Assembly: GCA_902635455.1 (NCBI GenBank)
Contig: CACPNW010000001.1
Location: 69,214 to 118,000 of the forward strand
Direction: 5' to 3'
Length of the DNA: 48,787 nt
From: an uncultured Alphaproteobacteria bacterium
Lineage (GTDB): Bacteria; Pseudomonadota; Alphaproteobacteria; HIMB59; GCA-002718135
In this document: piece by piece, positions 76-7,717 of the stretch
Numbering within the stretch: position 1 is the stretch's first letter
Layout: each line of letters begins with the position of its first letter
Position numbers and translations under genes: made by a program
The notes under the pieces: model-generated
What the model was told of the DNA's origin: nothing
Databases searched by the model: none
The model's input: only the letters and a program-made list of their open reading frames with translations

Positions 76-432
76 TCAATAATGCCCGTATCTTTGCATT
101 CTCCAACTGAGCAGTAAATAAATTGATAAAGGAATAATAAAAACAATTCCAGCCAGACTGATTAATAAACCCATGACCCAGAATAGTTCAAAAGTTTCCG
201 TCATAAAACTTTCATCATCACCCATAAACTTGTCAATACATACATCTTGATGCGTCCTTTCATCATCAGCCCATGTATCATTAGAGACATCTTTGCAATG
301 TTCTACCGCTTCTAAAAAAGAAGGACCTACCAACTTAAGCCTATCCCATACGAATAATAAATTAATAGAAAAAAATAATATGCTGAAGGCTACTGGGATA
401 GCATTAAAATAAAACCAGAAACTTTTAAACAT
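76..432 (-). CDS. Small two-TM membrane protein, unknown function
   Basis: I do not recognise this 118-residue protein. Two hydrophobic segments are visible, at about residues 7-30 and 83-110. They flank an acidic loop of about 50 residues with two cysteines (in CKDV and VCID) that could form a disulfide if the loop is periplasmic. It is the last gene of a tight four-gene minus-strand run and overlaps the end of the preceding gene by 8 bases, so the two are probably translationally coupled. Start is an ATG. Base composition is less AT-rich than in the core genes further right. Function is unknown; membrane placement is inferred from hydrophobicity only. Confidence 0.6.
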   Translation of the reverse strand: MFKSFWFYFNAIPVAFSILFFSINLLFVWDRLKLVGPSFLEAVEHCKDVSNDTWADDERTHQDVCIDKFMGDDESFMTETFELFWVMGLLISLAGIVFIIPLSIYLLLSWRMQRYGHY

Positions 433-703
433 TGCACCATTGATGAGCTACTTCATCTTCTAGTAGATTACAAAATACAGTTTCATAGCATTGTTGAAAT
501 TCATGTCTCTGATGGGAAAATTTTGAGCTGTTATAGTTAAAGCCTTTGTTTTCACATACTTTAATAATGCTAGTATCATAATTATTATATGCATAATTAG
601 ATGCTCCTACCCACGCATAAGCAAACTTAAATACTAATAATAAAACAGCAATTACAATAATAATTAGAAACTTATTTAGATATACTGAAAAGCCTCTAAA
701 CAT
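425..703 (-). CDS. Small single-TM protein with cysteine-rich tail, unknown function
   Basis: Unrecognised 92-residue protein. One hydrophobic segment (about residues 10-32) is followed by a soluble tail of about 60 residues with four cysteines (VCEN, QCYE, FCNL, WCNV), enough for two disulfides if the tail is periplasmic. Its ATG follows directly on the TAA of the preceding gene with no spacer, and its end overlaps the next gene by 8 bases, so it lies inside a compact operon. It may form a complex with the neighbouring small membrane proteins, but that rests on context only. Confidence 0.6.
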   Translation of the reverse strand: MFRGFSVYLNKFLIIIVIAVLLLVFKFAYAWVGASNYAYNNYDTSIIKVCENKGFNYNSSKFSHQRHEFQQCYETVFCNLLEDEVAHQWCNV

Positions 704-976
704 TTAATCAATCACACTTAAATCTAAATTAAAAGACCATAGAGCAGTAATTAAACATAAATATAACATTACATACAAAATCTCTCGAAGAAAAACGGGT
801 GATGATTTTTTGATGAAATGTAAATAATATATCCACCCACCAAGAATTAGAGAAGTAGAAATAAATATCACGACTTGGAAATATTTTATTGTATTTTCTA
901 TATTTGAAATACATGTAAGAATTAGAATAATAAAATAGGTTCCAAAAAATAAACCTGTTCTAGCAATAGATTCCAT
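704..976 (-). CDS. Small three-TM membrane protein, unknown function
   Basis: Unrecognised 90-residue protein made almost entirely of hydrophobic segments (about residues 8-26, 33-51 and 64-83). A short basic stretch (FIKKS) between the second and third segments is probably cytoplasmic by the positive-inside rule. Its ATG overlaps the stop of the preceding gene by one base (TAATG), and its own stop abuts the next ATG. Such spacing indicates translational coupling in one transcript. No catalytic motif is visible. Confidence 0.55.
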   Translation of the reverse strand: MESIARTGLFFGTYFIILILTCISNIENTIKYFQVVIFISTSLILGGWIYYLHFIKKSSPVFLREILYVMLYLCLITALWSFNLDLSVID

Positions 977-1407
977 TAAATTGACTCACCCGGCAAATTT
1001 GAAAAGATTAAATAAACAGCCATTGCAAAGTTGTTGTCATCTTCAATTTCTACTTCCTCACAGGCTACTACAAGTTTGTTATAAATATCTTCATAACCAA
1101 CATCTTTATCTGCAACGGGGCGTAAATCTTTAAAGGTATTGGTTTTTTCATAATACCTTATATTAAATGCTGTAAAAAAACCGTAAGCCCATTGAATATA
1201 TTCTAATCGGTAAATAAACGAACGACCACTTAGTTCTCCATCTTCATTTATTTGGTTGGTTGATTCGATGAATTGTTCACAATCAAGTGTACCTTTACCT
1301 GCTCCTACTGGAAAAGGTACAGCATAAGAATTGGTGGCACCTATAAGGAGGGTAATTATGAAAAAAATCGTAATTAAAAAAAGAACTATTCTCTTAACAA
1401 GTGCCAC
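976..1407 (-). CDS. Secreted/periplasmic small protein, unknown function
   Basis: This 143-residue protein starts with a clear signal peptide (KRIV followed by a long hydrophobic run, probable cleavage after NSYA). The mature part has two cysteines and a motif of the form YxxWAYGFFTAFN. A late cysteine is followed by an amphipathic helix ending in LPGE. This pattern resembles small periplasmic proteins of the Rap1a/HdeA-like kind common in Proteobacteria, but I cannot assign it firmly. It is the first gene of the four-gene run. The start is a GTG; no better in-frame ATG precedes the signal peptide. Confidence 0.6.
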   Translation of the reverse strand: MALVKRIVLFLITIFFIITLLIGATNSYAVPFPVGAGKGTLDCEQFIESTNQINEDGELSGRSFIYRLEYIQWAYGFFTAFNIRYYEKTNTFKDLRPVADKDVGYEDIYNKLVVACEEVEIEDDNNFAMAVYLIFSNLPGESI

Positions 1408-1471
1408 AGATTAATTAATATTAATACAATCAGGCAAATGTTAGGCTTAAACATGATAATTTTATGTTACC

Positions 1472-2038
1472 TTAAATATTTACTACTAAACTACTTATTG
1501 CAGAACAAATTGCACAAATACCAATGATAGCAATAAATATATCACTACCTTTTTGATTTTTTCTTTTACGTAGACTTAACCTTCTTTTTAATTCACCTGC
1601 AATTACTGCAGAACGAAATTCTGCTTCTTCGTTATTTGGTTTATTTTCAGCTATATCATAGATACATTTATTATAGATATTGACTAATTCTTTATTTTCC
1701 ATTGGTTTTAGACTTTTGAAAAAATCTGTCATATCTGTTGTATTTTCAGTAATATTAACTGGCTTGATTTCGTGATTAAGGTCGGTTGGACAAAAATAAC
1801 TATAACAAAAAACTGAAAGTAGAGCTTTAGATGGATAATTATGTTTCTTTGCTATCTGTAAACAACGCTCATATTCAGAGACAATTTCTTCTTTAGAAGC
1901 TTTGGAATTATGACGTTTAACGATATCTAAGCAAGCTTGACGATAGGCCATAGGGATATAAACGAAAGTTCGGTTTTCGAGCTTTTCTTTTTGTTCCTTA
2001 TAGTCTTTAAGGTTTATGACCTTTCTGTTATCGTTCAA
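1472..2038 (-). CDS. C-terminally membrane-anchored protein, unknown function
   Basis: Unrecognised 188-residue protein. The first about 165 residues are charged and helical-looking. The last about 20 residues are hydrophobic (DIFIAIIGICAICSAISSLV) and preceded by a very basic stretch (KRRLSLRKRKNQKG), which fits a C-tail membrane anchor with the bulk in the cytoplasm. The only plausible start is TTG at the right edge. Separate gaps on both sides suggest that it may not be cotranscribed with the 76-1407 run. Confidence 0.5.
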   Translation of the reverse strand: MNDNRKVINLKDYKEQKEKLENRTFVYIPMAYRQACLDIVKRHNSKASKEEIVSEYERCLQIAKKHNYPSKALLSVFCYSYFCPTDLNHEIKPVNITENTTDMTDFFKSLKPMENKELVNIYNKCIYDIAENKPNNEEAEFRSAVIAGELKRRLSLRKRKNQKGSDIFIAIIGICAICSAISSLVVNI

Positions 2039-3529: not shown

Positions 3530-3719
3530 GATTTTCCTTTCTTGTGTTTTGTTTTAGGAAATAAAGAAGGCCAAAGGATGCTGAAAGTTTGTTGATAAAA
3601 AGATTTTTGAAAAAAAATAATTTTATTGCAAAAATATTTTTTATGACATACTTTCGCCTAAGTTCATTTTTAATGAATAGAAGATTGGTTTTTTTGGTGT
3701 GATGAAATGGAAAGGAAAA

Positions 3720-4430
3720 ATGAAAAAAACAATATCTATTATTGACGACCATGACACACTACTAACCTCCCTAGCCCTTCAGTTTCAATCCCATGGTTAT
3801 AAGACCATAACCTTTGCGTGCCCTCTGAAGGCTTTAGAATACCATTCACAACATCCAGCTGACGGCTATGTCATCGACATGAAGATGCCTAAACTCACAG
3901 GCATTGAATTTTATAAGCAATTGTGCCAAAAATTGAATAAAGACAAACTTCCCGCCCTCTTTCTAACAGCTGTCCATGAACTTGAGGAAAAAGTTCTTAA
4001 ACAAACCTCCATTGGCGATTTTGTCAAAAAACCCTTTAGTTTTGATATTCTTGTTGTCAGATTGGAGAAAGTTATTTCCTACTTCACACCGCAAGAAAAA
4101 AGCAAAACCTACAAGATAGGCAATCTGGAGATTATGCCCGAACAAATCATAGTCAAATGGTTTGGTAAAGATATAGAGATGACCAAAAGTGAATTTGCCC
4201 TTGTTGAGCAATTAGTCAAGCGACCTTACGTAGTAAACACTCGCGACTATCTTCTAGATATTTGCTACGGTGAAGATATAGTGGTCGTGGATAGAAACAT
4301 TGATAGCCACATTAAACGTATTCGCAAAAAGTTTAGAGAAGCTAATCCGTCCATTAAGTTTGATAGAATCAAAACACATTATGGTAGTGGATACTCTTGG
4401 CACCCTAAATCACTTGCCTCAAACTCTTAA
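3720..4430 (+). CDS. OmpR-family response regulator, ChvI-like, orphan
   Basis: An N-terminal receiver domain has the acidic pair D9/D10, the phospho-acceptor D53 (in VIDMKMP), a conserved threonine in FLTAV and a lysine in VKKPFS. A C-terminal winged-helix DNA-binding domain (about residues 135-230) includes RNIDSHIKRIRKKF, very close to the ChvI recognition-helix region. ChvI regulators respond to envelope or acid stress with the sensor ChvG in Alphaproteobacteria. No histidine kinase gene is adjacent. I chose the ATG at 3720 because GGAAAGGA sits just before it; GTG 3699 and ATG 3702 are in-frame alternatives. GC content is visibly higher than in genes right of 4500. Confidence 0.85.
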   Translation: MKKTISIIDDHDTLLTSLALQFQSHGYKTITFACPLKALEYHSQHPADGYVIDMKMPKLTGIEFYKQLCQKLNKDKLPALFLTAVHELEEKVLKQTSIGDFVKKPFSFDILVVRLEKVISYFTPQEKSKTYKIGNLEIMPEQIIVKWFGKDIEMTKSEFALVEQLVKRPYVVNTRDYLLDICYGEDIVVVDRNIDSHIKRIRKKFREANPSIKFDRIKTHYGSGYSWHPKSLASNS

Positions 4431-6859: not shown

Positions 6860-7717
6860 ATGACACAAGCATTAAGCTTTATTTTTGTATTACTATGGTC
6901 GTCCGCTTTTATAACAAGTAAAGTTATTGTTGAAAATTCAACTCCTTTTGCATCATTAACCTTGAGATTTGCAATTGTTACTTTTGGTTTTTTATTATTC
7001 ACAATTTATTTAAAAGAAAAAATTTTAGTTAATATAAAATACGTCTATGAAGCTTGCTTTACAGGAATATTATTTCATGGATTTTATTTAGGTGGGGTTT
7101 TTTATTCTATATACATTGGTTTGCCGGCTAGTATCTCAGCTTTGATTGTATCTATGCACCCAATATTAACTAATATATTGGCAGGACCAATTTTAAATGA
7201 AGAAGTTTCTTGGAAACAATGGGTTGGAATTTCATTAGCATTTATTGGAACAATAATAGTTTTAGGTTTTGATATAGGCATAAGTATACCAATTATAGGA
7301 GTTATATTTTCATTTATTTCTTTATTAGCTGTTACTTCCGCAACAATAGTACAAAAAAAACTAAGTAGAAGATTGCCATTGTCTGTTAGCAATTTTTATC
7401 AAGCTTTAGGAGCTACTATTTTTTTATTATTAGTGATGTTTTTTACTGAAAATTCTTATCTAATATTTAATTATAAATTTGTGTTGGCTATGGGGTGGCA
7501 GATTATTGCTATATCATTTGGGGCATTTTCAATCTTAATGTACTTAATCAAAAATGGAACTGCTAGTCAAACTTCTAATCTATTTTTTTTAGTACCGCCT
7601 GTATCTGCATTAATGGCTTGGTTATTTTTAAAAGAAGTAATTACTTATTATGATATTTTAGGTTTGATCATTACTACATCTGGTGTCTATATAGCTACTC
7701 GTGATAGAAAAAAATAA
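6860..7717 (+). CDS. EamA/DMT-superfamily transporter
   Basis: About ten hydrophobic segments in 285 residues form two EamA repeats. The opening LSFIFVLLWSSAFITSK and the second-half motif SALMAWLFLKEVITYYDILG (EamA end-of-domain KE motif) are typical. DMT proteins usually export amino acids or other metabolites; substrate unknown. The gene converges on a second, diverged EamA gene with only 4 bases between stops. Confidence 0.9.
   Translation: MTQALSFIFVLLWSSAFITSKVIVENSTPFASLTLRFAIVTFGFLLFTIYLKEKILVNIKYVYEACFTGILFHGFYLGGVFYSIYIGLPASISALIVSMHPILTNILAGPILNEEVSWKQWVGISLAFIGTIIVLGFDIGISIPIIGVIFSFISLLAVTSATIVQKKLSRRLPLSVSNFYQALGATIFLLLVMFFTENSYLIFNYKFVLAMGWQIIAISFGAFSILMYLIKNGTASQTSNLFFLVPPVSALMAWLFLKEVITYYDILGLIITTSGVYIATRDRKK

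What the first reader, a model, noticed from the sequence alone, without database searches (positions are those of the whole stretch)
76..1407. Tightly coupled four-gene cluster of unknown small membrane and secreted proteins
Four genes with 1-base (TAATG), zero-base and 8-base junctions encode a secreted protein, a three-TM protein, a single-TM protein with four cysteines in its tail and a two-TM protein with two cysteines in its loop. The cysteines are placed where periplasmic disulfides could form. None is recognised, and the tight coupling suggests one envelope complex.
Basis: partly seen in the sequence, partly recalled or inferred. Interest (0 to 1): 0.5.

Follow-up and report, generated by a model that had tools for sequence, protein, structure and literature searches.

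The report
Mobile envelope operon with hairpin start
Four small genes of a marine bacterium form one operon of unrecognised envelope proteins; two of them travel together through its relatives, and the first gene begins with a shared promoter, RNA hairpin and export-signal cassette that also heads other, different genes.

Summary
The four genes and their junctions are real (minus strand: P1 976-1407, P2 704-976, P3 425-703, P4 76-432). No Pfam, NCBIfam or PADLOC model fits; PHROGs gives only marginal hits. They are not a fixed four-gene unit. The conserved core is P2+P4: P4 is in 28 of 102 genomes of the genus, P2 in 24, both in 22; P2 lies just upstream of P4 in 21 of 28 P4 loci (here with P3 between). 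P1 was found in 2 of 101 genomes; P3 convincingly only here. The gene in front of P2-P4 varies. P1's weak model resembles Tai4/HdeA. The unexpected part is P1's start: its first 74 bases are a copy of an element found in 88 of 102 genomes (86 at a stricter cut). Compensatory changes support an 11-bp stem on the coding strand; the same bases encode a signal-peptide-like helix; upstream of the divergent copies compared lie four direct repeats spaced 11 bp, the layout of OmpR/PhoB-class operators (the window's own copy is weak). The element heads stand-alone small peptides, different secreted proteins and P2-P4 operons. Best reading: a mobile envelope module under an OmpR/ChvI-type regulator. Its biochemical function and regulator are not shown.

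The parts
976..1407 (-). P1, secreted protein of 143 aa, GTG start, C43 and C116; predicted fold resembles Tai4/HdeA (weak model)
   Evidence: ORF; 74% identical ortholog in G054 with both cysteines kept; model pLDDT 61.9; VIA Z 6.2 Tai4, 5.7 HdeA
1334..1407 (-). 74-bp element: start codon plus signal-peptide-coding sequence, GTGGCAC...GTGCCAC
   Evidence: same element in 88 of 102 genus genomes at E 0.1, 86 at E 0.01
1397..1407 (-). 5' arm of the stem
   Evidence: 11 pairs; covariation over copies
1334..1344 (-). 3' arm of the stem
   Evidence: 11 pairs; covariation over copies
1424..1467 (-). place of the four 11-bp direct repeats upstream of the element; weakly kept in this copy
   Evidence: 11.0-bp period over 26 divergent upstream regions; the window copy scores 15.4 at the expected place, third best in the window, and 5 shuffled windows peak at 14.7-16.6
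704..976 (-). P2, 90-aa protein with three hydrophobic regions, constant member of the module
   Evidence: 24 of 102 genus genomes; A6; just upstream of P4 in 21 of 28 P4 loci
425..703 (-). P3, 92-aa protein with one hydrophobic stretch and four cysteines, found with confidence only here
   Evidence: 2 of 101 genomes, the other a weak partial hit with a stop; 1 of 28 P4 loci; no profile similarity to P4
76..432 (-). P4, 118-aa protein with two hydrophobic stretches and a loop holding C46 and C65
   Evidence: 28 of 102 genus genomes; both cysteines invariant in the 9 copies aligned
1472..2038 (-). P5, 188-aa protein upstream of P1; its homolog lies directly downstream of P4 in G127. Loosely linked
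   Evidence: L089 6734-7300; 2 of 28 P4 loci, the window included
3699..4430 (+). OmpR-family response regulator (listed ORF; homologs begin about 7 codons later), candidate regulator
   Evidence: PF00072 and PF00486; in 14 of 102 genus genomes at E 1e-80; within about 1.5 kb of P4 in 5 of 28 loci; binding not tested

Best explanation
The cluster is one version of a mobile, co-regulated envelope module in a genus of the HIMB59/AEGEAN-169 order. Transcription starts at a promoter with four 11-bp direct repeats, the layout bound by OmpR/PhoB-class regulators, perhaps ChvI or its paralog at 3699-4430. The mRNA probably begins close to the GUG, and its first 74 nt fold back into a stem that holds the start codon; the same 74 nt encode the signal peptide that exports P1. 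P2 and P4 are the constant membrane part, P4 exposing a loop with two conserved cysteines that probably form a disulfide. The gene in front (P1 here, other proteins elsewhere) is the exchangeable periplasmic part. I propose that envelope stress switches the module on and that it protects the envelope or blocks an intruder there. Shown by computation: cluster, P2-P4 pairing, shared element, stem covariation, coding constraint, 11-bp period over copies. Inferred: regulator, near-leaderless start, stem as translational switch, disulfide, P2-P4 contact, stress or defence role.
For: P2 in 24, P4 in 28, both in 22 of 102 genomes (hypergeometric 7.5e-15, relatedness ignored); P2 just upstream of P4 in 21 of 28 P4 loci. 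Variable front gene: 281-aa protein 8, P1 2, 209-aa 2 of 28. Element in 88 of 102 genomes. Stem: 463 of 528 cells paired against 415.3 +/- 5.8, maximum 436 of 2000 with shuffled 3' ends; both-side changes at pairs 4, 5, 7-11; 70 G-U against 4 A-C cells on the coding strand. Coding: frame 0 open in 59 of 59 distinct copies; codon position 2 almost fixed in yjbQ copies. 11.0-bp period, power 25.1 against shuffle maximum 3.1. The Sel1-repeat gene at L002 10808, outside the training set, scores 28.4 exactly at its start. Islands: integrase and tRNA-like ends in G054; restriction-type neighbours in 6 loci.
Against: The window's own repeats are weak. The local regulator is in only 14 of 102 genomes, so it cannot serve most copies; in 26 genomes scanned for OmpR-class regulators one, G007, which has the element, showed none (G007 is 59% complete). 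PMC9731502 finds a different motif, TTGC-N3-GCAA, for Caulobacter ChvI. No RNA ends, binding or phenotype are known. The stem count on the first 24 copies was weaker inside the stem (pair 12 unpaired in 17 of 24). P1's model is poor. The restriction neighbours were picked by eye for testing.
Confidence: 0.4

Rival explanations
1. Ordinary descent: a good promoter plus signal peptide was duplicated and recombined onto several exported genes. The stem is a relic or chance feature without function.
For: All copies look homologous in DNA and peptide, promoter included; 14 VCG-family proteins share both signal peptide and body.
Against: Stem changes are compensatory, with sequence changed on both arms and amino acids changed on both sides, in several lineages, e.g. 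GTGGTAC/GTACCAC (L150, L152) and GTGACAC/GTGTCAC (L084:672); G-U far exceeds A-C on one strand.
Confidence: 0.2
2. The stand-alone element is a type I toxin-like gene: a short hydrophobic peptide whose mRNA is held silent by long-range pairing, with an antisense RNA still to be found. Fused copies arose by capture of its start as a signal peptide.
For: Stand-alone copies encode hydrophobic peptides of about 28-33 residues under coding constraint, in several copies per genome in some genomes, and the stem joins start codon and distal end. AapA toxin mRNAs are silenced by a 5'-3' long-distance interaction (PMC6733600, passages).
Against: No antisense RNA or promoter was found or sought systematically; the peptide works as a plausible signal peptide in secreted proteins; the 11-bp operator fits an exported regulon.
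Confidence: 0.15
3. The P2-P4 pair with its front protein is a phage-defence or superinfection-exclusion device carried on islands.
For: Integrative islands and restriction-type neighbours; small membrane proteins with a variable partner.
Against: No PADLOC match for P1-P5 at E 0.1; restriction neighbours differ from locus to locus and were chosen by eye; P1 has no relative found in viral contigs.
Confidence: 0.2
4. One reading: one four-protein envelope complex held by disulfides.
For: Tight junctions; conserved cysteines in P1 and P4.
Against: P3 in 1 and P1 in 2 of 28 P4 loci.
Confidence: 0.05

Closest known systems
OmpR/PhoB-class regulons, in particular ChvG-ChvI of Alphaproteobacteria
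   Same: Direct repeats with 11-bp spacing upstream; PMC9731502 (passages) quotes N-GCC-N8-GCC for S. meliloti ChvI; envelope role of ChvGI; a ChvI-like and a local related regulator exist here.
   Different: Four repeats with CC core in AT-rich DNA; same paper finds another motif in Caulobacter; the target genes are unrecognised; regulator not identified.
Type I toxin mRNAs with 5'-3' long-distance interaction (AapA family)
   Same: Short hydrophobic peptide, several copies, long-range pairing around the start (PMC6733600, passages).
   Different: No antisense RNA shown; the same sequence is the signal peptide of larger secreted proteins; no Shine-Dalgarno was recognised by eye at the start.
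HdeA / Tai4 (Rap1a/Tai) helical periplasmic proteins
   Same: Best fold matches of the P1 model; two cysteines.
   Different: No Pfam match; Z about 6 on a poor model; no toxin partner known.
Rickettsia palindromic elements (recalled)
   Same: Short repeat with inverted ends lying in frame in different genes.
   Different: Here at the start of the frame with its own upstream repeats; not compared by any search.

Membership tests
HdeA / Tai (Rap1a) families | Match to a Pfam or NCBIfam family model | tested here: not met
   P1: 0 families at E up to 1 in both
HdeA / Tai (Rap1a) families | Fold | tested here: inconclusive
   Tai4 Z 6.2 (82 aligned, 3.1 A), HdeA Z 5.7 (78 aligned, 3.5 A), next unrelated row 4.3, of 78 chains compared; model pLDDT 61.9
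OmpR/PhoB-class regulon (ChvI) | Direct repeats of 11 bp upstream of the promoter | tested here: met
   Over 26 divergent copies; the window copy alone is weak
OmpR/PhoB-class regulon (ChvI) | GCC-N8-GCC core | tested here: inconclusive
   C at block positions 2 and 3 in 60% and 57% of blocks; G at position 1 in 15%; motif known to me from a passage only
OmpR/PhoB-class regulon (ChvI) | Binding by the regulator | not testable with these tools
   -
Type I toxin-antitoxin | Short hydrophobic translated peptide | tested here: met
   Stand-alone copies, codon test and hydropathy
Type I toxin-antitoxin | mRNA silenced by long-range pairing | tested here: inconclusive
   Stem supported by covariation; silencing not tested
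Type I toxin-antitoxin | Antisense RNA antitoxin | not tested
   No systematic search made
Type I toxin-antitoxin | Toxicity | not testable with these tools
   -
Known anti-phage defence systems | Match to a PADLOC model | tested here: not met
   P1-P5 and the 187-aa protein at 2072-2635: 0 families at E up to 0.1
Known structured RNA families | Rfam match at the element | tested here: not met
   8 loci searched at gathering score, two tRNA hits only

The most novel reading that the evidence does not exclude
A portable start cassette: four 11-bp operator repeats, a near-leaderless GUG start and a 74-nt sequence that is at once an mRNA stem and a signal peptide. It is exchanged between unrelated exported proteins and stand-alone micro-proteins, so that one regulator controls an open set of envelope genes through transcription and RNA folding together.
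Probability: 0.4. Interest if true: 0.78.

Novelty: new variant of a known kind. Interest (0 to 1): 0.6.

Why it matters
It suggests how a streamlined ocean bacterium can add new envelope genes to an existing circuit by giving them a ready-made start, and it names an undescribed membrane pair (P2-P4) that travels with integrative islands. A sequence that is under both RNA-structure and peptide constraint is directly testable with a reporter.

Tried and rejected
Four-gene complex as a fixed unit: against it the distribution of P1 and P3.

P3 as a diverged P4: profile comparison finds nothing.

Protein-bound DNA dyad instead of a folded strand: 70 G-U against 4 A-C cells (29 against 3 without pairs 8 and 11) and compensatory changes favour folding of the coding strand; folding as single-stranded DNA is not excluded.

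A reading of the opposite strand (AGGAG followed by ATG inside many copies) was considered: in the type shared with P1 the ATG is not kept in all copies; not tested further.

A sigma-54 promoter and integron attC sites were considered from memory only.

CC-N9-CC-N9-CC in the window: 5 matches, 1.89 expected, none at the cluster. Rfam: nothing at the element. PDB by sequence for P1: best E 1.3, not convincing. VCG family fold: best VIA Z 5.2 and 4.7, Foldseek none at E 0.001; Pfam nothing (two members); no claim made. A P1 hit in G024:C14 (25% over residues 63-117, E 5e-4) and an A7 hit in G145 were not followed. Paper searches on Rickettsia elements gave nothing useful.

Full report
WHAT IS THERE. 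The window is G000:C1:69214-118000, from a 1.14-Mb, 68% complete genome in 43 contigs. The clade is inferred: P1's relative lies in G054, which matches the named single-cell record AG-404-B13, 'uncultured Alphaproteobacteria bacterium'; placing the order as HIMB59/AEGEAN-169 rests on G061 looking like HIMB59 and on recall; I made no taxonomy call. Pfam, NCBIfam and PADLOC give nothing over cut-off; PHROGs gives marginal hits only, best E 0.012 for P3.

WHICH GENES BELONG TOGETHER. Searching 101 genomes, P1's body is found here and in G054, 74% identical; one weak hit in G024 was not followed. In G054, P1 is followed through TAATG by a P4 homolog; P2 and P3 are missing there. Profiles find P4 in 28 and P2 in 24 of 102 genomes of the genus, both in 22 (hypergeometric 7.5e-15, which ignores relatedness). 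Around the 28 P4 genes, with about 1.5 kb on each side where the contig allows, P2 is directly upstream in 20 and in the window with P3 between, 21 of 28; in G118 a P2 lies on the same contig about 17 kb away. In front stands a 281-aa protein in 8, P1 in 2, a 209-aa protein in 2; a divergent secreted family, here called VCG, lies within that range in 17. In the 60 other genomes of the order P4 gave one weak partial hit. P4's C46 and C65 are invariant in the 9 copies aligned. P3 had one other weak partial hit, in G061, with a stop inside.

THE START OF P1. The P1 search drew hits in 36 of 101 genomes, nearly all by the first 28 or so residues only. They mark a DNA element, usually 74 bp, from GTGGCAC to GTGCCAC, at 1334-1407 in the window. 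The exact-end pattern occurs in 73 of 102 genus genomes (backward control: 1 of 102). A covariance model finds it in 88 of 102 at E 0.1; at E 0.01 in 86 of 102, plus two genomes of other genera of the family. In the loci that I read, copies head stand-alone frames of about 28-33 residues before yjbQ and beside bactofilin and other genes; P1; 281-, 257-, 191- and 183-aa secreted proteins; and, as a 73-bp stand-alone form, P2-P4 operons in G115, G127, G051 and G020, and by coordinates in G011 and G034.

STEM. Over 65 chosen copies (44 distinct end pairs) 463 of 528 cells of a 12-pair stem pair, against 415.3 +/- 5.8 with shuffled 3' ends (maximum 436 of 2000). Pair 12 itself pairs in only 15 of 44. 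With the two copies without a GTG anchor dropped (39 distinct pairs of 11-nt ends), changes on both sides that keep a pair occur at pairs 4, 5, 7, 8, 9, 10, 11, and there are 70 G-U against 4 A-C cells on the coding strand. Two of these, GTGGTAC/GTACCAC (L150, L152) and GTGACAC/GTGTCAC (L084:672), change amino acids on both sides. Caveats: copies were collected by exact ends or by a model holding this stem, and they are related. On the first 24 exact-end copies the inner pairs did worse (pair 9 unpaired in 8, pair 12 in 17 of 24).

CODING. Frame 0 is open in 59 of 59 distinct copies (other frames 0 and 22; the opposite strand 39, 7 and 1). In 12 yjbQ copies differences per site at codon positions 1, 2, 3 are 0.113, 0.010, 0.200; codons with one difference are 134 synonymous and 110 not, ratio 1.22 against 0.29 expected. 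Other stand-alone copies: 0.58 against 0.32; fused copies: 1.40 against 0.34; type 2 had only 2 sequences and says nothing. So the peptide is probably made where the element stands alone.

PROMOTER. In 26 divergent upstream regions C is concentrated every 11.0 bp, at -59/-58, -48/-47, -37/-36 and -26/-25 (power 25.1, shuffle maximum 3.1 of 2000). PMC9275681 (passages) says that OmpR-family factors often bind direct repeats; PMC3687685 (passages) mentions an 11-bp putative ChvI motif; PMC9731502 (passages) quotes N-GCC-N8-GCC for S. meliloti ChvI but finds TTGC-N3-GCAA in Caulobacter. Against the reading for this very copy: the window's upstream region scores 15.4 at the exact place, third best in the window, while 5 shuffled windows peak at 14.7-16.6; one of 25 training regions scores 0.7. 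For it: the Sel1-repeat gene left of the window (L002 10808), not in the training set, scores 28.4 at its start, the best in that 18 kb. The regulator at 3699-4430 is 35% identical to a ChvI-like protein of the same genome and 30% to a PhoB of G015 (the PhoB passes its NCBIfam cut-off, the other two pass none of those listed; 'ChvI-like' is my reading). It occurs in 14 of 102 genomes, so another regulator must serve most copies. OmpR-class domains were found in 25 of 26 genomes scanned.

P1 FOLD. The model (pLDDT 61.9, two sequences) has Tai4 and HdeA as best matches, Z 6.2 and 5.7, then unrelated rows from 4.3. That P1 might be HdeA-like had been noted by eye before. It is a lead only.

CONTEXT. 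In G054 the pair lies between a tRNA and a marginal tRNA-like stretch, with an integrase. Left of the window lie a tyrosine recombinase and a Sir2 protein; look-alikes of both recur in G103, G106 and G118 beside element-bearing genes or P2 (integrases of G106 and G118 confirmed by Pfam). In six P2-P4 loci, neighbours picked by eye were a cytosine methylase, type I restriction parts, helicases or a nuclease (G058, G101, G051, G111, G018, G020). PMC10734472 (passages) reports HIMB59 islands of mostly hypothetical proteins and no tRNA ends at its phosphate islands. Searches for an earlier description of such an element showed none in their listings; they cover open-licence papers only.

CONCLUSION. 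What deserves follow-up is the P2-P4 pair and the shared promoter-hairpin-signal start.

Noticed in passing
L026 2292-7371 (G054:C28): About 5-kb island between a tRNA (7300-7371) and a marginal tRNA-like stretch (2292-2364), with an integrase whose frame overlaps the latter.
   Followed up: partly
L002 5288-7244; L150, L154, L157: A tyrosine recombinase and a Sir2 protein recur side by side next to element-bearing genes or P2 in G000, G103, G106, G118.
   Followed up: partly
L002 10808-11659: Sel1-repeat protein with a related signal peptide; its upstream region is the best operator match in 18 kb, exactly at its start.
   Followed up: partly
L087 5231-5920, L080 4319-5092 and others (alignment A8): VCG family: secreted proteins of about 230-260 aa with two invariant cysteines after the signal peptide, often divergent from P2-P4; no Pfam match for the two members tested and no clear fold match.
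   Followed up: partly
1334-1407, plus strand: The opposite strand of the element carries a Shine-Dalgarno-like AGGAG and, here, a short open frame with ATG; the ATG is not kept in all copies.
   Followed up: no
L093 694-1362; L162 4182-4838; L039 2109-2798: A 218-229-aa membrane-anchored protein family follows P4 or the 191-aa protein in several loci; its member in L093 has no Pfam match.
   Followed up: no
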